DNA from: Pararhodobacter aggregans
Lineage (GTDB): Bacteria; Pseudomonadota; Alphaproteobacteria; Rhodobacterales; Rhodobacteraceae
Direction of reading: 5' to 3'
Assembly (NCBI RefSeq): GCF_003075525.1
Contig: NZ_QDDR01000003.1
Coordinates: 62,001 to 126,000, forward strand
Length of the DNA: 64,000 bases
The notes below the pieces were generated by a model, which saw only the letters and a program-made list of their open reading frames with translations, searched no databases and was not told the DNA's origin. This document shows positions 42,518-49,810 of this stretch, one piece after another; the stretch's first letter is position 1; the number at the start of each line of letters is the position of its first letter. The translations under genes and the position numbers were made by a program.

Positions 42518-43312
42518 TCAGGATTTGACGGCCCCGCCGATGGACCGGGTGATCTCGGCTGCCGCCGCCCTGACCCGGGCGCCCAGCTCCGGCAGCGCAT
42601 CGGGCGGCAGGCGGAACACCGGCCCGCTGATCGAGACACCGGCGACCGGCTCGCCATGGGCGTTGAAGATCGGCGCGGCGACGCAGCGCATGCCCTCGGT
42701 CCGTTCCTGATTGTCCAGCGCCCAGCCCCGGCTGCGGGTCAGGGCGAGGTTGCGCGCCAGCGCCTCGGGCTCGGTGATCGTGGCCTCGGTGAAGCGGGTC
42801 AGCGGCCCCGGGTTCAGCCCCGGCATCCAGGCCATGAGCGCCTTGCCGATGCCCGAGGCATGAAGGGCCGAGCGCGTCCCGGGCGAGAAGAAGGCGCGGA
42901 TCGCCTGATGCGTCTCCACCTGCGTGAGGAACAGGACCTCGCCCTGCTGCTCGATCCCCAGATTGGCGGTCTCGTTCGTGGCCCGCATCAGCGCCTGCAT
43001 TGGCGCCCGGGCCCGTTCGACGACATTGGTGCGCCGGAGGAAGGCCGCGCCAGTGCGGAAGGTGCCAGCGCCGACGTACCAGACCTGCCCCCGTGGATCG
43101 AGCTCCACCATCTGCCGCTGCGCCAGCGTGGTCAGCACGCGGTAGGTGGTGGCAGGCGATTCGCCTTCGGCCTGCGCCAGTTCGGTCAGGGTCATCCCGT
43201 CCGATCCCGCCAGCGCTTGCAACAGCGCCATGGCCCGGTCCAGCGCCCGGATCGTGTTCTGCTCGGTCTTGTCGTGAAAGGCCTTGGGACGGCCGCGGCG
43301 GGACTCGGTCAT
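42518..43312 (-). CDS. bhcR: IclR-family regulator of the beta-hydroxyaspartate cycle (BhcR-like)
   Basis: 264 residues. A winged helix-turn-helix occupies about 18-80 (MTLTELAQAEGESPATTYRV) and an IclR effector domain about 95-260 (HASGIGKALMAW near 150, NERTEG-like QERTEGMRCVAAPIF near 205). It is divergent from bhcABCD, as in Paracoccus denitrificans where BhcR controls the cycle in response to glyoxylate. Two TTTCA/TGAAA palindromes in the 157-bp divergent region are candidate operators. Confidence 0.88.
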   Translation of the reverse strand: MTESRRGRPKAFHDKTEQNTIRALDRAMALLQALAGSDGMTLTELAQAEGESPATTYRVLTTLAQRQMVELDPRGQVWYVGAGTFRTGAAFLRRTNVVERARAPMQALMRATNETANLGIEQQGEVLFLTQVETHQAIRAFFSPGTRSALHASGIGKALMAWMPGLNPGPLTRFTEATITEPEALARNLALTRSRGWALDNQERTEGMRCVAAPIFNAHGEPVAGVSISGPVFRLPPDALPELGARVRAAAAEITRSIGGAVKS

Positions 43313-43331
43313 GTACGCCTCCGAAAATCGA

Positions 43332-43346
43332 TTTCAATAGATGAAA
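43332..43346. promoter_or_regulatory. Candidate BhcR operator, bhcR-proximal
   Basis: TTTCA-ATAGA-TGAAA, a perfect 5-bp inverted repeat with 5-nt spacer, 20 bp upstream of the bhcR start. The arms also occur, everted, at 43395-43409. Confidence 0.45.
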
Positions 43347-43394
43347 AAGTATAGCAGCTTATGATGATTGGGAAAATCACCCTCAAGGCACTTG

Positions 43395-43409
43395 TGAAAA
43401 AACATTTCA
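43395..43409. promoter_or_regulatory. Candidate BhcR operator, bhcA-proximal
   Basis: TGAAA-AAACA-TTTCA, the same half-site in inverse order. It is enclosed by a wider inverted repeat CCCTCAA (43380-43386) and TTGAGGG (43416-43422) in the AT-rich part of the bhcR-bhcA promoter region. Confidence 0.45.
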
Positions 43410-43469
43410 AAAAAATTGAGGGGGGAGGCGCCGCGCCCTAGGATCAGCGGACAATCAAGGAGCGCGACC

Positions 43470-44669
43470 ATGACCGCCCACCAAGCCTTTGCCCAGAACC
43501 CGGTCTTCATTCCCGGCCCCACCAACATGCCCGAGGCCCTGCGCAAGGCCTGCGATGTGCCGACGCTGGACCACCGCTCGCCCGCTTTCGCGCGAATGCT
43601 GGCCCCGGCGCTGGCGGGGGTGAAGCGGGTGATGGGTATGGAGTCGGGCGAGGTGTTCCTGCTGCCCGCCACCGGCACCGGCGGCTGGGAGGCGGCGATC
43701 GCCAACACGCTTTCGCCCGGCGACCGGGTGCTGGCGGCGCGCTATGGCGTCTTCTCGGCCCGCTGGATCGACCTCTGCCAGCGTTTCGGGCTGGAGGTCG
43801 AGGTGCTGGACACCCCCTGGGGCGAGGGCCTGCCGCTGGAGCGGATCGAGGCGGCGCTGAGGGCCGACCGGACCGGCCGGATCAAGACGGTTCTGGCCAC
43901 GCATAACGAGACGGCGACCGGCGTGCGCTCGGACATCGCCGGGCTGCGCCGGGCGATGGACCGGGCCGGGCACGAGGCGCTGATGATGGTTGACGGGGTC
44001 AGTTCCATCGCCTCGATGCCGTTCGATTTCAGCGGCTGGGGCGTCGATATCGCGGTGACCGGCAGTCAGAAGGGCTTCATGCTGCCGCCGGGGCTGGCGA
44101 TTCTGGGGCTCTCGGACAGGGCGCTGGCGGCGATGGAGAATGCCCGCCTGCCCCGCACCTATTTCGACCTGAAGGACATGCGCCGCAGCATGGCGGCGGG
44201 CGGCTATCCCTATACCCCGCCGGTCGGGCTGATCGCCGGCCTCGCCGCCTCGGTGGCGATGCTGGAGGATGAGGGCCTGGCGGCGGTCCACGCCCGCCAC
44301 TACCGGCTGGCCGAAGGCGTGCGCCGGGCCGTGGCGGGCTGGGGGCTTTCCACCTGCGCCGCCGGGCCGGCGCTCGCCTCGGATACGGTGACGGCGGTTC
44401 TGGCGCCCGAGGGCTGCGATGCCAACGCCTTCGTCGCCCGCGCCGCCGGGACCTATGGCATGGCCTTCGGCACCGGGCTGGGACAGCTGGCGGGCAAGGC
44501 CTTCCGCATCGGCCATCTGGGGATGCTGTCGGACCCCCTGATGCTGGCCGGGCTGGCGACGGCCGAGATGGTGATGGCGGATCTGGGCTGGCCGGTCCGG
44601 CTGGGCTCGGGCGTGGTGGCGGCGCAGGACTTCTATCGCGGGGCCTTGCCGCTGGCGGCGGCGGCCTGA
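43470..44669 (+). CDS. bhcA: L-aspartate:glyoxylate aminotransferase BhcA
   Basis: 399 residues of the class V PLP aminotransferase (serine-glyoxylate type) family: FIPGPTNMPEALRKA at the start, TGTGGWEAAIANTLSPGD near 70, and PLP lysine K201 in VTGSQKGFMLPPGLA. ATG 43470 follows CAAGGAGCGCGACC. In the beta-hydroxyaspartate cycle this enzyme aminates glyoxylate to glycine using aspartate. The gene order and a divergent IclR regulator agree with the Paracoccus cluster, which is what separates it from ordinary serine-glyoxylate aminotransferases. Confidence 0.92.
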   Translation: MTAHQAFAQNPVFIPGPTNMPEALRKACDVPTLDHRSPAFARMLAPALAGVKRVMGMESGEVFLLPATGTGGWEAAIANTLSPGDRVLAARYGVFSARWIDLCQRFGLEVEVLDTPWGEGLPLERIEAALRADRTGRIKTVLATHNETATGVRSDIAGLRRAMDRAGHEALMMVDGVSSIASMPFDFSGWGVDIAVTGSQKGFMLPPGLAILGLSDRALAAMENARLPRTYFDLKDMRRSMAAGGYPYTPPVGLIAGLAASVAMLEDEGLAAVHARHYRLAEGVRRAVAGWGLSTCAAGPALASDTVTAVLAPEGCDANAFVARAAGTYGMAFGTGLGQLAGKAFRIGHLGMLSDPLMLAGLATAEMVMADLGWPVRLGSGVVAAQDFYRGALPLAAAA

Positions 44670-44693
44670 GGGCGGGGCTGACGCCCCGGGAAA

Positions 44694-44784
<91 letters not shown>

Positions 44785-44859
44785 GCGGGGGGCTGCCGCC
44801 CCCCGCACCCCCCGCTTCAAGGAGGGTTTTCCACCCTCCTTGAAAATCCTCCCGAGGAT
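44785..44859. repeat. G-rich hairpin element with GGATATTTGG tail, copy 1
   Basis: Three successive perfect hairpins: GCGGGGGGC/GCCCCCCGC (44785-44806), TTCAAGGAGGGT/ACCCTCCTTGAA (44816-44844) and ATCCTC/GAGGAT (44846-44859). They are followed by ATTTGGAGAACAAAG immediately before the bhcB ATG. Related elements are at 47010 and, inverted, at 49825-49881. Confidence 0.7.
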
Positions 44860-44874
44860 ATTTGGAGAACAAAG

Positions 44875-45846
44875 ATGAAGGATCTGGGGATGGAACTCCC
44901 GAGCTATGCCGATGTGGTGGCCGCGCAGGCGCGGATCGCGCCGCATGTGCACCGGACGCCGGTGCTGACCTCGCGGATGATGGATGAACAGGCCGGGGCC
45001 TCGCTGTTTTTCAAATGCGAGACTTTGCAGAAGGCCGGGGCCTTCAAGGCGCGCGGGGCCGCGAACGCGGTGTTCGGGCTGAGCGAGGCGCAGGCGGCGC
45101 GGGGGGTGGCCACGCATTCCTCGGGCAATCACGGGACCTGTCTGGCCTATGCCGCCGGGCGGCGGGGCATTCCCTGCACCGTGGTGATGCCGCGCACCGC
45201 GCCGCAGGCGAAGAAGGACGCCGTGCGCGGCTATGGCGGGCGGGTGGTGGAATGCGAGCCCTCGACCACATCCCGCGAGGCGGTCTTTGCCGGGGTGCTG
45301 GCCGAAACCGGGGCCGAATTCGTCCATCCCTACAACGACAAGCGGGTCATCGCCGGTCAGGGCACCTGTTCGCTGGAGCTGATCGAGCAGGCGCCGGATC
45401 TGGACGCGGTGATCGCGCCGATTGGCGGGGGCGGGATGGTCTCGGGCACCTGTCTGGCGCTGTCGCAGGCGGCACCGCGGGTGCGGATCTATGCCGCCGA
45501 GCCTGAACAGGCCGACGATGCGGCGCGCAGTTTCCGCGCCGGGCATATCATCGCTGACGACGCGCCGGTCACGGTGGCGGACGGGCTGAAAGTGCCGCTG
45601 AAGGCGCTGACCTGGCATTTCGTCAGCCGCCATGTCACCGATATCCTGACCGTCAGCGAGGCGGAGATCATCGCCGCCATGCTGCTGATCTGGAAGCGGC
45701 TGAAGATCATCGCCGAGCCTTCGAGCGCGGTGCCGCTGGCCGCCGTGCTGAAGAACCCCGCCTTGTTCGCCGGGCAGCGGGTCGGCATCATTCTCACCGG
45801 CAGCAATGTCGACCTCGACCGTCTGCCCTGGCAGCAAGGAGCCTGA
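44875..45846 (+). CDS. bhcB: beta-Hydroxyaspartate dehydratase BhcB
   Basis: 323 residues of the fold-type II PLP family (serine racemase/threonine dehydratase-like). PLP lysine K58 is in GAFKARGA, the catalytic Ser region SSGNHG at 82-87, the phosphate-binding glycine loop GGGGMVSG near 185, and a C-terminal TGSN. It dehydrates (2R,3S)-beta-hydroxyaspartate to iminosuccinate. The ATG directly follows the GGATATTTGGAGAACAAAG tail, whose GGAG serves as ribosome site. Confidence 0.92.
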   Translation: MKDLGMELPSYADVVAAQARIAPHVHRTPVLTSRMMDEQAGASLFFKCETLQKAGAFKARGAANAVFGLSEAQAARGVATHSSGNHGTCLAYAAGRRGIPCTVVMPRTAPQAKKDAVRGYGGRVVECEPSTTSREAVFAGVLAETGAEFVHPYNDKRVIAGQGTCSLELIEQAPDLDAVIAPIGGGGMVSGTCLALSQAAPRVRIYAAEPEQADDAARSFRAGHIIADDAPVTVADGLKVPLKALTWHFVSRHVTDILTVSEAEIIAAMLLIWKRLKIIAEPSSAVPLAAVLKNPALFAGQRVGIILTGSNVDLDRLPWQQGA

Positions 45847-45849
45847 GCC

Positions 45850-47004
45850 ATGAAAGATATCGCGGATCTGGAGGTCGGTTTCGATGTGCCCGCCCTGCCG
45901 GGGATGACGGAAGCCGAGATCGCGACGCCCTGTCTGGTGCTGGATCTGGACGCGCTGGAGCGCAATCTGCGCAAGATGGGGGCCTATGCCGCCGCCCACG
46001 GGATGCGGCTGCGGGTGCATGGCAAGATGCACAAATCGGTCGATGTCTACCGGTTGCAGGAGGAGATCGGCGGCGCCTGCGGCATCTGCTGCCAGAAGGT
46101 CAGCGAGGCCGAGGTCTTTGCCCGGGCCGGGGTCAGGGATGTGCTGGTCTCGAACCAGGTGCGGGGCGCGGCCAAGGTCGACCGGCTGGCGCGGCTGCCG
46201 ACGCTGGGCGCGCGCACGCTCTGCTGCGTCGACGATCCGGCGAATGTGGCCGAGCTGTCGGCGGCGGCGGTGCGGCACGGGACGCAGATCGAATGCCTGG
46301 TCGAGATTGATTGCGGCGCGGGGCGCTGCGGGGTTTCCTCGACCTCGGACGTGGTGGCGCTGGCCCGGGCCATCGACGCCGCGCCGGGGCTGAAATTCGC
46401 CGGGCTGCAGGCCTATCAGGGGGCGATGCAGCACCTCGACCGCTATGCCGACCGCAAGGCCAAGCTGGATGTCGCGGTGGCCATGGTGCGCGAGGCTGTC
46501 GAGGCGCTGGCGGCCGAGGGGCTGGACTGCGACATCGTCGGCGGCGGCGGCACCGGCAGTTATTATTTCGAGAGCGCCTCAGGCGTCTATAACGAGCTGC
46601 AATGCGGGTCCTACGCCTTCATGGATGCGGATTACGGCCGGATCCTCGATGAAGGCGGCCAGCGGATCGACCGCGGGGAATGGGAGAACGCGCTGTTCCT
46701 GCTGACCTCGGTCATGAGCCATGCGAAGGCCGATCGGGCGGTGGTCGACGCCGGGCTGAAGGCGCAATCGGTGGACAGTGGCTTGCCGGTGGTCTTCGGG
46801 CGGGACGACGTGCGCTATGTGAAATGTTCGGACGAGCATGGCGTCATCGAGGACCCTTCGGGCGCCCTGACGGTCGGCGACCGGCTGCGGCTGGTGCCGG
46901 GGCATTGCGATCCGACCTGCAACGTCCACGACTGGTATGTCGGCGTCCGGAACGGGGTGGTCGAGGTGGTCTGGCCCGTCTCGGCCCGCGGCAAGGCCTG
47001 GTGA
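45850..47004 (+). CDS. bhcC: beta-Hydroxyaspartate aldolase BhcC
   Basis: 384 residues, fold-type III (alanine-racemase-like) D-threonine aldolase/DSD1 family. PLP lysine K59 is in VHGKMHKS. The C-terminal metal site is in GHCDPTCNVHDWY near 355, with His and Cys ligands as in metal-dependent aldolases. It condenses glycine with glyoxylate to beta-hydroxyaspartate, the carbon-carbon forming step of the cycle. It starts 3 nt after bhcB and is probably translated with it. Confidence 0.92.
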   Translation: MKDIADLEVGFDVPALPGMTEAEIATPCLVLDLDALERNLRKMGAYAAAHGMRLRVHGKMHKSVDVYRLQEEIGGACGICCQKVSEAEVFARAGVRDVLVSNQVRGAAKVDRLARLPTLGARTLCCVDDPANVAELSAAAVRHGTQIECLVEIDCGAGRCGVSSTSDVVALARAIDAAPGLKFAGLQAYQGAMQHLDRYADRKAKLDVAVAMVREAVEALAAEGLDCDIVGGGGTGSYYFESASGVYNELQCGSYAFMDADYGRILDEGGQRIDRGEWENALFLLTSVMSHAKADRAVVDAGLKAQSVDSGLPVVFGRDDVRYVKCSDEHGVIEDPSGALTVGDRLRLVPGHCDPTCNVHDWYVGVRNGVVEVVWPVSARGKAW

Positions 47005-47009
47005 GGAAG

Positions 47010-47071
47010 CCGGGGGCATTCTGCCCCCGGACCCCCTGAGCGTATTTGGGACAAGATGATGAGGGTGCGGC
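47010..47071. repeat. G-rich hairpin element with GTATTTGG tail, copy 2
   Basis: CCGGGGGCA-TTC-TGCCCCCGG (47010-47030) followed by ACCCCCTGAGCGTATTTGGG and the bhcD ribosome site GATGAGGG. It has the same layout as the element ahead of bhcB. Confidence 0.65.
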
Positions 47072-48025
47072 ATGCTGGTGGTGCCTGAGCGGCTGATTGC
47101 CGGGCTGATGGGGCCGGACGAGGCCTTCGAGGCCGTGGCCGAGGTGTTCCGGCAGACGGCCGGGGGCGCGGCGCGGAACTTTCCGGTGGTGCGCGAGGCC
47201 CTGGGGGGCGGGCGGCAGTACGGGTTCAAATCGGGGATGGGCCCGGGGGCGCTGGGGGTCAAGGCAGGGGGCTATTTCCCCGGCAACGCGGCGCGCGGGA
47301 TCACCAACCACCAATCGGTGGTGACGCTTTTCGATCCCGAGACCGGGCGGCCCGAGGCGATGATCGGCGGCAATCTGTTGACCGCGCTGAGAACCGCGGC
47401 GGCGGCGGCGGTGTCCATCGACGCGCTGGCCCGGCCCGGGGCGCGGGTGCTGGGGATCGTCGGTGCCGGGCATCAGGCAGCGTTCCAGCTGCGCGCCGCG
47501 GCCCGGGTGCGGCGCTTCGAGCGGGTGATCGCCTGGAACCGGACGCCGGAGCGGCTGGCGGGGCTGGCGGCGGTCGCGGAGGAGCTGGGGCTGCCGTTCG
47601 AGGCGGTCCCGCTGGCAGGGATGCGCGAGGCGGAGGTCATCGTCACCATCACCTCTTCGCCGGCCTATGCCCTGGCGGCGGCACATGTCTCGCCCGGCAC
47701 GCATCTGGCCTGCATGGGCACCGACACGATCGGCAAGCAGGAGGTCGAGCCCGCCCTTCTCGGCGCGGCGCGGGTCTTCACCGACGAGCCCGCGCAATCG
47801 GTGACGCTGGGCGAGGCGCAGCACGCGGTGGCGCAGGGCTTGCTGGACCCCGCCCGCATCGTGCCGCTGGGCGCGGTCCTGACCGGCGAGGCCCCGGGGC
47901 GCGAGGATCCCGACCAGATCACCCTCTATGATGGCACCGGGGTCGGGCTTCAGGACCTCGCCGTCGCGGCAAGGGTGCTGGCGCTGGCCAAGGCACGCGG
48001 CCTCGCAATCCCGGTTGAGATTTGA
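47072..48025 (+). CDS. bhcD: Iminosuccinate reductase BhcD
   Basis: 317 residues of the ornithine cyclodeaminase/mu-crystallin family, with substrate-domain FKSGMGPGALGVKAGGYFPG near 50, NLLTALRTAAAAAVS near 107 and the NAD loop GIVGAGHQAAFQL near 128. In the beta-hydroxyaspartate cycle BhcD reduces iminosuccinate to L-aspartate, regenerating the amino donor for BhcA. Position as fourth gene in bhcABCD supports this over other family functions. Confidence 0.9.
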   Translation: MLVVPERLIAGLMGPDEAFEAVAEVFRQTAGGAARNFPVVREALGGGRQYGFKSGMGPGALGVKAGGYFPGNAARGITNHQSVVTLFDPETGRPEAMIGGNLLTALRTAAAAAVSIDALARPGARVLGIVGAGHQAAFQLRAAARVRRFERVIAWNRTPERLAGLAAVAEELGLPFEAVPLAGMREAEVIVTITSSPAYALAAAHVSPGTHLACMGTDTIGKQEVEPALLGAARVFTDEPAQSVTLGEAQHAVAQGLLDPARIVPLGAVLTGEAPGREDPDQITLYDGTGVGLQDLAVAARVLALAKARGLAIPVEI

Positions 48026-48069
48026 TCAAACCAAGCCTAGCAAGGGGGCCTCAGCCTTCGGAGGGTGCC

Positions 48070-49047
48070 ATGCGGGTGATGATCAACGGCTTCGGGCGGA
48101 TCGGGCGGACGGTACTGCGCGCCTGGCTGAAAGGCGGCTGGCCGGGGATCGAGATTGTCGCCATCAACGACATCGCCCCCGCCGAGACCTGCGCCTATCT
48201 TCTGGAATACGACAGCGTTTTCGGGCCCTTGGAGGGTGTGGCGCTGGAGGGCGAGACGCTGGTCGTCCAGGGCCGCCGCCTGCCGCTGACCCGGGTGTCG
48301 GACATCGGCACGCTGGACCTGTCGGGCGTCGATCTGGTGATGGAATGCACCGGCAAGGCCGAGTCGCGGGCGGTCGCCGAGGCCGGGCTCAGCGCCGGGG
48401 CGGCGCGGGTGCTGATCTCTGGCCCCTCGGACGCGGCGGATGCGACGCTGGTCCTTGGCGCGAATGACGCGCTGCTCACGCCCGCCCTGCGCGTGGTCTC
48501 GAACGCCTCCTGCACCACCAACGCGCTGGCGCCCCTGGCCCGTCTGCTGGACGAGGCCTTCGGGATCAGCGCCGGCTGGATGACGACGATCCATTGCTAC
48601 ACCGGCTCGCAACCCACCGTGGACGCGCCGCGCTCCTCGGACCCCGCGCGCAACCGGGCCGCGGCGCTGTCGATGGTGCCGACCACGACCAGCGCCGGGC
48701 GGCTTCTGGACCGGGTGCTGCCGACGCTCGAAGGAATCATCGAATGCGCCGCGGTGCGGGTGCCCACCGCCAGCGTCTCGGCCGTGGACCTCTGCGTCGT
48801 GCCGAAGCGCCGCGCGGGGGTCGAGGCGGTCAATGCCGTGCTGGAGGGCGCGGGCGGGGTGATCGGCTGGACCGCGAAGCCGCTGGTGTCGTCGGACCTG
48901 CGCGCCCGGCCCGAATCGATCGTCATGGCCCTGCCCGAGACGCGGGTCAGCGGTGCCGGGCTGATCCGGGTGTTCGGCTGGTACGACAACGAATGGGGCT
49001 TCTCGTGCCGCATGCTGGACATGGCTGAGCGGATGGGCGCGGCATGA
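48070..49047 (+). CDS. Glyceraldehyde-3-phosphate dehydrogenase-family enzyme
   Basis: 325 residues from ATG 48070 (after GGAGGGTGCC). NAD-binding start INGFGRIGRTVLRAW, catalytic Cys148 in SNASCTTNALAP, substrate-binding stretch THHCYTG-like IHCYTGSQPTVDAP near 175, and C-terminal WYDNEWGFSCRMLDMAERM. It could be GapA/GapB or erythrose-4-phosphate dehydrogenase; divergence around 185-200 (ARNRAAALSMVPTTTSAG) leaves this open. It begins 44 nt after bhcD and overlaps the next gene (ATGA), so it may be part of the bhc transcript. That is unexpected for a glycolytic enzyme. Confidence 0.85.
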   Translation: MRVMINGFGRIGRTVLRAWLKGGWPGIEIVAINDIAPAETCAYLLEYDSVFGPLEGVALEGETLVVQGRRLPLTRVSDIGTLDLSGVDLVMECTGKAESRAVAEAGLSAGAARVLISGPSDAADATLVLGANDALLTPALRVVSNASCTTNALAPLARLLDEAFGISAGWMTTIHCYTGSQPTVDAPRSSDPARNRAAALSMVPTTTSAGRLLDRVLPTLEGIIECAAVRVPTASVSAVDLCVVPKRRAGVEAVNAVLEGAGGVIGWTAKPLVSSDLRARPESIVMALPETRVSGAGLIRVFGWYDNEWGFSCRMLDMAERMGAA

Positions 49048-49810
49048 TTACCATCGCCGACGCCATCCTGCATGCCTTCGACCGCGGCCAGCCGATGGCG
49101 CCGATCACCGACTCCGACCCGGGGTTCGACCTGCCCCGCGCCTATCAGGCGCAGGCGCTGCTGACCGCGGCCCGGGTCCGGCGCGGCGCCCGGGTGGTCG
49201 GGGTGAAAACCGGCTTCACCAACACCACGATCTGGGACGAGTACAACGTCCACGCCCCGATCCACGGGCCGGTCTTCGACACGACCTGGCGCACGGGACC
49301 CCTGGCCCTCGCCCCCTTCCTCGAACCCCGGATCGAGCCCGAGATTGTGCTGAAGCTCGGCGCCTCGCCCGCGCCCGGCATGGGGCCGGAGGCGCTGAAA
49401 ACCTGCGTCGCCGAGGTCGCGCGCGGGTTCGAGATCGTGCACTCCCCCTTCCCCGGCTGGCGTTTCCGCGCGCCCGATACCGTGACGAGGGCGCCCTGCA
49501 CGGCGCCCTCGTCACCGGCGATTTCGTCCCGGCCACGCCCGGGCTCCTCGACGCGCTCGCCGATCTCGACGTCACGCTCCTCTGCGACGGCGCCGCCATG
49601 GACCGGGGCCATTCCCGCAACGTCCTGGGTCTCGGGCCGCTCGCCGCGCTGGCCGATCTGGTGGCGCAACGGGGCGAGGACCGGCTGCCGGCGGGCTGGA
49701 TCGTCTCGACCGGCACGCTGACCCGCGCCCTGCCCATCGCCCCCGGCCAGAGCTGGACCACCACCATCGACGGCGCCGACCTCCCGCCGCTGACCCTTGC
49801 CCTGACCTGA
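49044..49810 (+). pseudogene. 2-keto-4-pentenoate hydratase/FAH-fold gene with frameshift
   Basis: The frame opening at ATG 49044 encodes a good family match up to GWRFRAPDTV (about residue 147): PITDSDPGF, ARVVGVKTGFTN, and PRIEPEIVLKLG with metal-binding Glu residues. It then turns into Ser/Arg/Pro-rich nonsense. From about 49487 the family sequence resumes one frame over (GALHGALVTGDFV, LCDGAAMDRGHSRNVLG) and runs to the stop at 49810. One base is missing near 49485. Joined, it would be about 255 residues, normal length. Either a genuine inactivation or a sequencing error. The start overlaps the upstream dehydrogenase gene. Confidence 0.8.

What the first reader, a model, noticed from the sequence alone, without database searches (positions are those of the whole stretch)
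42518..49810. Complete beta-hydroxyaspartate cycle cluster with two extra downstream genes
bhcR and divergent bhcABCD are all present, with catalytic residues visible (BhcA K201, BhcB K58, BhcC K59, BhcD NAD loop). This net-assimilates glyoxylate/glycolate carbon into C4 units. Unlike the published core cluster, it is followed at short distance by a GAPDH-family gene and an ATGA-coupled hydratase-family gene, which could be new accessory members handling a phosphorylated or keto-acid intermediate.
Basis: partly seen in the sequence, partly recalled or inferred. Interest (0 to 1): 0.7.

Follow-up and report, generated by a model that had tools for sequence, protein, structure and literature searches.

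The report
Glyoxylate cycle cluster with extra dehydrogenase
A bacterium carries the known genes that turn two-carbon glyoxylate into a four-carbon building block, and right behind them sits an unusual version of a central sugar-metabolism enzyme that keeps turning up with glyoxylate genes in related bacteria and is a good candidate for an overlooked partner of the pathway.

Summary
The bhcRABCD cluster is real (42518-48025). Two genes follow. The first (48070-49047) belongs to a GAPDH subfamily distinct from the canonical GAPDHs of the same genomes: one clade of 67 with 100/100 support and fixed serines at window positions 208 and 235. In 289 genomes of the class only the four of the window's own family have it. 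It lies within 0.8 kb behind bhcD in 19 of 54 relatives' loci. Of 45 copies away from bhcC, 12 lie near allA, a purine-to-glyoxylate gene. Stand-alone BhcR-like/gap pairs carry the bhcR-bhcA dyad GAAA-N5-TTTC upstream of the regulator in 6 of 8 loci, against 13 of 1175 controls. Most likely it is a dedicated GAPDH for the gluconeogenic exit; its substrate is untested. The second gene, the 'hydratase', is frame-broken here at a perfect 14-bp inverted repeat, intact in two congeners, and next to gap in five loci seen: not a conserved accessory. A 90-G run between bhcA and bhcB is probably an assembly artefact. Two dyads 71-73 bp apart fit the published two-site idea for BhcR.

The parts
42518..43312 (-). 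bhcR, IclR-family regulator
   Evidence: NF045644 384.2 bits, cut-off 350; 95% identical to the congener L116
43323..43335 (.). operator-like dyad GAAA-N5-TTTC, bhcR-proximal (candidate BhcR site)
   Evidence: 25 sites of this class lie 141-182 nt before bhcA in the 53 stretches
43396..43408 (.). operator-like dyad GAAA-N5-TTTC, bhcA-proximal (candidate BhcR site)
   Evidence: 33 sites of this class lie 63-83 nt before bhcA in the 53 stretches
43470..44669 (+). bhcA, L-aspartate:glyoxylate aminotransferase
   Evidence: NF045640 668.4 bits, cut-off 650 (ORF from 43416); K201
44694..44783 (.). run of 90 G, probable assembly artefact
   Evidence: absent in the congener L116, and no G or C run of 14 or more in the 80 loci L058-L137; a run of 92 G ends 14 nt before the end of contig C1 of the same assembly
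44875..45846 (+). bhcB, beta-hydroxyaspartate dehydratase
   Evidence: NF045641 576.7 bits, cut-off 550; K58
45850..47004 (+). bhcC, 3-hydroxyaspartate aldolase
   Evidence: NF045642 738.5 bits, cut-off 690; best solved relative 6qkb D-3-hydroxyaspartate aldolase, E 3.4e-194
47010..47066 (.). intercistronic repeat
   Evidence: 28 of the 36 other matches in the own genome cover this stretch
47072..48025 (+). bhcD, iminosuccinate reductase
   Evidence: NF045643 493.2 bits, just under the cut-off 500; best solved relative 6rqa
48070..49047 (+). GAPDH-family gene of a distinct subfamily
   Evidence: Pfam Gp_dh_N and Gp_dh_C; own clade; clade-specific residues; dN/dS 0.075 against the congener
49044..49486 (+). 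hydratase/decarboxylase-family gene, N-terminal part (first frame)
   Evidence: weak TIGR03220/TIGR03218 hits; 90% identical to the intact congener gene in L116
49482..49515 (.). perfect 14-bp inverted repeat (arms 49482-49495 and 49502-49515, loop 6) at the frame break
   Evidence: the left arm differs in the congener L116
49487..49810 (+). hydratase/decarboxylase-family gene, C-terminal part (second frame)
   Evidence: TIGR03218 hit of 25.1 bits; 88% identical to the C-terminal part of the intact L116 protein

Best explanation
This is a beta-hydroxyaspartate cycle operon extended by a dedicated GAPDH isoenzyme. BhcR reads glyoxylate through two dyads between bhcR and bhcA and switches on bhcABCD, which turn two glyoxylate into oxaloacetate (known for Paracoccus; inferred here from homology). 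The last intact gene makes an NAD-type GAPDH paralogue of a subfamily that recurs with glyoxylate genes. I think it serves the gluconeogenic exit of the cycle: oxaloacetate, PEP, 3-phosphoglycerate, 1,3-bisphosphoglycerate, then glyceraldehyde 3-phosphate. Shown here: identity of the genes, the separate clade, catalytic residues kept, recurrent linkage, and the same dyad before stand-alone BhcR-like/gap pairs. Inferred: co-transcription, glyoxylate induction, substrate and direction. The hydratase-family gene behind it is a narrow, mostly genus-level addition that is broken, or wrongly assembled, in this genome.
For: 32 of 65 clade genes lie within 8 kb of bhcC or allA, against 0 of the 85 listed canonical paralogues. 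Stand-alone BhcR-like + gap pairs: 6 of 8 carry GAAA-N5-TTTC within 250 nt upstream of the regulator, against 13 of 1175 control ORFs. The same dyad is in 39 of 53 bhcR-bhcA stretches, 1.1 expected from shuffles, but found and counted on the same set. dN/dS of gap 0.075 against the congener. Cys148, His175, Thr178, Arg194, Thr207 and Arg230 are in the window protein and invariant in the 18 proteins of A1, Asp34 nearly so (roles recalled). Five loci have a malic-enzyme-like gene behind gap (cluster 41; one tested, 970.9 bits, under the cut-off 1178). Fold: GAPDH, TM-score 0.88.
Against: 33 of 65 clade genes are near neither bhcC nor allA; 92 of 235 neighbour ORFs of gap from named loci without bhcD gave no dominant Pfam family. 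30 of 89 genomes without bhcC have the gene and 25 of 60 with bhcC lack it. Only 1 of 85 unlinked gap genes has the dyad in its own upstream 250 nt. The protein misses the GAPDH-I cut-off (321.3 against 367.2) and has clade-wide changes near the active site, so the G3P reaction is an assumption. The own genome has four further matches to GAPDH, so another one for the same reaction needs a reason. In Rhodobacter capsulatus one regulator represses a gap3 while it indirectly activates allA (PMC9603854, passages); whether gap3 is of this clade is unknown.
Confidence: 0.5

Rival explanations
1. A GAPDH-family enzyme with a changed substrate: the subfamily oxidises or reduces an aldehyde other than G3P that appears during glyoxylate, glycine or purine use.
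For: Clade-wide changes: S at window 208 (67 of 67; G or K in the 22 outgroup rows) and S at window 235 (66 of 66 that reach it; N in 22 of 22), S at 180, R at 278, and A or G at 152 where canonical copies have C. Under every GAPDH and E4PDH equivalog cut-off listed in 3 of 3 members tested. Long stem branch, 0.57 changes per column.
Against: Thr178, Arg230, Ser147, Cys148 and His175 are kept and Thr207 is T or S, as expected for a phosphorylated aldehyde; E. coli GapA has T, not D, at the position of S180. The model is poor just there (pLDDT under 50 at 178-185).
Confidence: 0.23
2. An erythrose-4-phosphate dehydrogenase that raises pyridoxal phosphate supply, because BhcA, BhcB and BhcC all need this cofactor.
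For: E4PDH models are next after the two best GAPDH models for the window protein (265.6 and 263.5 bits) and second for L122; 2x5k and 2xf8 are among the top fold matches; BhcA, B and C belong to PLP enzyme families.
Against: Far under the E4PDH cut-offs (265.6 against 539; 263.5 against 530.55). E. coli Epd has M where the clade keeps T178 and K where it has S208. No PLP-synthesis family among the 25 commonest families of 92 neighbour ORFs (73 further families were not listed).
Confidence: 0.1
3. Bystander: gap is a spare GAPDH that sits in a conserved stretch of chromosome (bhc, gap, purine genes) by inherited gene order only.
For: 24 of 62 bhcC loci lie within 8 kb of allA, so the stretch as a whole is partly conserved; 33 of 65 clade genes lie near neither.
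Against: With labels corrected the tree needs 10 gains or losses of bhc linkage, at least 6 of them forced by well-supported branches (8 in the first tree, in which L159 was mislabelled); these may be losses. Stand-alone pairs with a BhcR-like gene carry the dyad (6 of 8); none of the 85 listed canonical paralogues shows such linkage.
Confidence: 0.12

Closest known systems
bhcRABCD cluster of Paracoccus denitrificans (beta-hydroxyaspartate cycle)
   Same: Same five gene families and divergent bhcR; the two dyads fit the published idea of one BhcR site for bhcR and one for bhcA (PMC11323563, passages)
   Different: Followed by a GAPDH-family gene; the main text of that paper holds 'glyceraldehyde' 0 times. 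Whether P. denitrificans has the clade gene was not tested
Type I GAPDH (TIGR01534; 3doc, 1gd1)
   Same: Fold, Cys/His pair, NAD-type Asp, 44-46% identity in the fold matches
   Different: Under the curated cut-off; own clade with fixed changes at window 208, 235 and others
Erythrose-4-phosphate dehydrogenase (Epd; 2x5j, 2xf8)
   Same: Family, fold, altered position at window 208
   Different: T178 kept (M in E. coli Epd), S not K at 208, far under the cut-off
DmpE/DmpH-type hydratase/decarboxylase
   Same: Intact congener proteins match these models nearly end to end, best 78.7 bits (L116) and 83.0 bits (L117); best solved relative of L116 is 8ih6_F, 4-oxalocrotonate decarboxylase, E 8.2e-26
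   Different: Far under the cut-offs (350-409 bits); frame-broken in the window

Membership tests
bhc cluster (beta-hydroxyaspartate cycle) | BhcR, BhcA, BhcB, BhcC over NCBIfam equivalog cut-offs | tested here: met
   384.2/350, 668.4/650, 576.7/550, 738.5/690
bhc cluster (beta-hydroxyaspartate cycle) | BhcD over NCBIfam equivalog cut-off | tested here: inconclusive
   493.2 against 500 bits; best solved relative is iminosuccinate reductase 6rqa
bhc cluster (beta-hydroxyaspartate cycle) | divergent bhcR and bhcABCD order | tested here: met
bhc cluster (beta-hydroxyaspartate cycle) | growth on glyoxylate or glycolate, induction by glyoxylate | not testable with these tools
   needs the strain
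type I GAPDH (TIGR01534) | curated score cut-off | tested here: not met
   321.3 against 367.2; 333.8 and 324.6 for two further clade members
type I GAPDH (TIGR01534) | GAPDH fold and catalytic Cys-His pair | tested here: met
   the model is weak (pLDDT under 50) at 178-185
type I GAPDH (TIGR01534) | oxidation of G3P | not testable with these tools
   enzyme assay needed
erythrose-4-phosphate dehydrogenase | curated score cut-off | tested here: not met
   265.6 against 539 and 263.5 against 530.55
DmpE/DmpH hydratase/decarboxylase | curated cut-off of an equivalog, one open frame | tested here: not met
   intact relatives at best 78.7 and 83.0 bits against 350-409; window copy in two frames

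The most novel reading that the evidence does not exclude
A previously unrecognised GAPDH subfamily, nearly confined to Rhodobacteraceae, has been recruited into glyoxylate metabolism with a changed active site and works on an aldehyde other than glyceraldehyde 3-phosphate, adding a missing step or safety valve to the beta-hydroxyaspartate cycle and to the use of purine-derived glyoxylate.
Probability: 0.22. Interest if true: 0.7.

Novelty: new variant of a known kind. Interest (0 to 1): 0.45.

Why it matters
Glycolate is an abundant carbon source that this cycle assimilates (PMC11323563, start of the abstract and passages), and the cycle has been put into Arabidopsis and Pseudomonas putida (PMC12214560, passages; PMC8166194, search listing with the start of the abstract). 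A recurrent extra enzyme in its native neighbourhood would bear on how the cycle is drained or balanced in the cell. The two spaced dyads also give a direct, testable form to the published two-site idea for BhcR.

Tried and rejected
Hydratase as a conserved accessory: rejected, five loci seen. Its 11 further relatives at 41-52% identity in the family sample (L161-L171) were looked at with about 1.5 kb on each side and show no bhc gene that I could recognise; four lie beside a gene that I took by eye for trpA-like, three of these also beside an lldD-like one (L164, L169, L170; L171 trpA-like only).

BhcR control of every stand-alone gap gene: not supported, 1 of 85 unlinked genes with the dyad in its own upstream 250 nt; the dyad is found before pairs with a BhcR-like gene (6 of 8).

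Erythrose-4-phosphate dehydrogenase: considered because of three PLP enzymes, weakened by residues and scores.

AllA co-occurrence: uninformative, since 138 of 149 genomes have AllA; only adjacency was used. For one search I left out the weaker listed AllA matches (104 bits and less) and those that the call did not list.

Terminator and promoter scans gave nothing useful (0 terminators, 2.5 expected; 1 promoter-like site on the - strand).

Literature: bhcD with glyceraldehyde-3-phosphate dehydrogenase, 0 papers; iminosuccinate reductase with gene cluster, 0; erythrose-4-phosphate dehydrogenase with alphaproteobacteria and pyridoxal, 0; three or more of GAPDH/glycolate/Paracoccus/BHAC, 7 papers, none of them with both GAPDH and BHAC; GAPDH with ureidoglycolate, glyoxylate and Rhodobacter, 1 paper (passages). 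The library lacks most subscription journals; the 2019 paper that described the cycle was not seen (recalled).

Errors mended: a first dN/dS script failed on the reverse strand and was repeated. In the first tree L159 was labelled unlinked although it lies behind a lower-scoring bhcC; one search repeats the tree with that label mended and with the 24 of 65 clade genes that had first been assigned by score alone. A second GAPDH of G106 (339.6 bits) scores like the weakest clade members but is canonical by its motifs (L142) and was counted as a paralogue.
Full report
What is there. The window lies in contig C3 of a 5.08-Mb, 32-contig genome. A same-genus genome, G152, has a contig of 197,920 bases, the length of NZ_LRRR01000006.1 of Pararhodobacter sp. 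CCB-MM2, so the genus is probably Pararhodobacter. The cluster reads bhcR (-), then bhcA, B, C, D, a GAPDH-family gene, and a hydratase-family gene in two frames. NCBIfam supports R, A, B and C over their cut-offs and D just under; the best solved relatives are 6qkb for BhcC and 6rqa for BhcD.

Quality of the sequence. Between bhcA and bhcB there is a run of 90 G. The nearest congener, L116, has the same stretch without it. The assembly holds three G or C runs of 20 or more: this one, one of 92 that ends 14 nt before the end of contig C1, and one of 28 at C1:282351-282378. That pattern, next to a G+C-rich hairpin, is what two-colour Illumina chemistry can leave (recalled); I treat it as a probable artefact. 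The hydratase frame break lies in a perfect 14-bp inverted repeat with a loop of 6. In L116 the gene is open, the right arm is the same and the left arm differs. A perfect palindrome made from an imperfect one is the mark of template switching (recalled), in the cell or in library preparation; the data cannot tell which. Both pieces still show purifying selection against L116 (dN/dS 0.17 and 0.25; bhc genes 0.07-0.25; gap 0.075), so any loss is recent.

Gene order in relatives. BhcC is over its cut-off in 60 of 149 family genomes (62 loci) and 8 of 18 genus genomes, the own genome counted in both. I fetched 54 of the 62 family loci (left out: the own one and seven others, several on short contigs) and 6 of the 8 genus loci (left out: the own one and one on a short contig). 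gap lies on the same strand within 0.8 kb behind bhcD in 19 of 54 and 2 of 6; in L078 and L106 another ORF lies between, and L105 has only a fragment. The spacing over 37 loci, named ones included, has a median of 98 nt; one locus is counted twice (L078, L201). Two of the 54 and two of the 6 loci have bhcC without bhcA or bhcD. The hydratase was found beside gap only in L116 and L117, L191 and L194, besides the window; of these only L116 and L117 were checked to be open.

A distinct GAPDH. The window protein finds a match in all 149 genomes. By score and motif 65 genomes hold a clade gene; all 65 were fetched, one of them partial (G012). In the tree of 88 proteins these 65 and the two congener genes form one side of a branch with 100/100 support; a first tree had 43 of them. 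Against 22 outgroup sequences the clade has S for G at window 208 in 67 of 67 and S for N at window 235 in 66 of 66 that reach it (209 and 236 in the usual GAPDH numbering, recalled), and R for N at window 278 in the 43 checked. The first cysteine motif is SCTTNA, or SCTTNG in four, instead of SCTTNC. S at window 180 is less telling, since E. coli GapA has T there. Thr207 is S in 12 of 67; Cys148, His175, Thr178 and Arg230 are invariant in the 18 proteins of A1. In 289 genomes of the class the clade shows in the 4 genomes of the window's family (478-569 bits); the best match in any of the other 285 has 393 bits. One named record outside the family, Jiella avicenniae, has it (L259; family by recall). 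The model folds as GAPDH.

Neighbours. Of 65 clade genes 20 are within 8 kb of bhcC, 24 of allA, 32 of either; 33 are near neither. Of the 85 listed canonical paralogues none is. The list of paralogues was cut, and one unlisted canonical copy does lie beside bhcR in G140 (L058). Genomes with bhcC have the clade in 35 of 60, without in 30 of 89 (Fisher p 0.004), a modest association. The purine neighbours were named by NCBIfam on one protein each: allantoinase PuuE with UraD, ureidoglycine aminohydrolase, ureidoglycolate lyase, hydroxyisourate hydrolase, xanthine permease; the PuuD label got 0 families and is by eye, as are the LysR and gcv labels. Among 80 named and 20 unlinked loci gap also sits beside gcvTHP-like genes (L120, L136), a BhcC relative (L191, L244, L257), a malic-enzyme-like gene (5 loci) and a semialdehyde-dehydrogenase-like gene (7 loci); the two last were tested on one protein each and lie under their cut-offs. 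Many other loci show no such neighbour.

Regulation. In 53 bhcR-bhcA stretches the dyad GAAA-N5-TTTC occurs in 39 (1.1 expected from shuffles), in two position classes, 63-83 and 141-182 nt before bhcA; of 18 stretches with two, 16 have them 71-73 bp apart. In the window they start at 43323 and 43396. The P. denitrificans paper reports one possible palindromic site upstream of the bhcA -35 region and proposes a second one for bhcR (PMC11323563, passages); the comparison supports two. Eight loci have a BhcR-like gene beside gap without bhcA; six have the dyad within 250 nt upstream of the regulator, against 13 of 1175 control ORFs. Two of the six are near relatives (L223, L231) and so, it seems, are the two misses (L215, L216). 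IclR-type regulators in general may use similar dyads (recalled), so this points to common regulation of the pair, not to the inducer. Two of these regulators were scored: 306.7 and 347.0 against the BhcR cut-off of 350.

Reading. The known cycle gives oxaloacetate. A co-regulated GAPDH most simply serves gluconeogenesis from it; the purine, glycine and malic-enzyme neighbours fit a role in growth on C2 units. The fixed changes near the active site leave room for another substrate, which I rate at about one in four. The frame-broken hydratase should not be cited as part of the pathway.

Noticed in passing
window 44694-44783: Run of exactly 90 G between bhcA and bhcB; a run of 92 G ends contig C1 of the same assembly. 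Probable assembly artefact.
   Followed up: yes
window 49482-49515: Perfect 14-bp inverted repeat at a frame break, not perfect in the congener L116: template-switch type change or library artefact.
   Followed up: partly
window 43323-43335 and 43396-43408: Two GAAA-N5-TTTC dyads, mostly 71-73 bp apart where relatives have two: likely BhcR operator pair.
   Followed up: yes
window 47010-47066: Intercistronic repeat between bhcC and bhcD; 28 of 36 other matches in the own genome cover it.
   Followed up: no
L191 (Pararhodobacter sp. CCB-MM2) and L114: The same genome (G152) holds two bhcC: one in a bhcRABCD cluster without gap, and a second, lower-scoring one (644.8 bits) just before gap and a hydratase match (76%; not checked for an open frame).
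   Followed up: partly
L102, L111, L113, L115: BhcC over its cut-off with no bhcA or bhcD found in the fetched stretch (L115 has a weak bhcB-like hit).
   Followed up: no
L058:256-1239 (oriented): G140 has a canonical GAPDH gene on the other side of bhcR in addition to the clade gap behind bhcD.
   Followed up: no
L105:6816-7107 (oriented): G108 has only fragments of the clade gap behind bhcD.
   Followed up: no
L259 (Jiella avicenniae): Clade gap outside Rhodobacteraceae (family by recall), next to a malic-enzyme-like gene: probable transfer.
   Followed up: no
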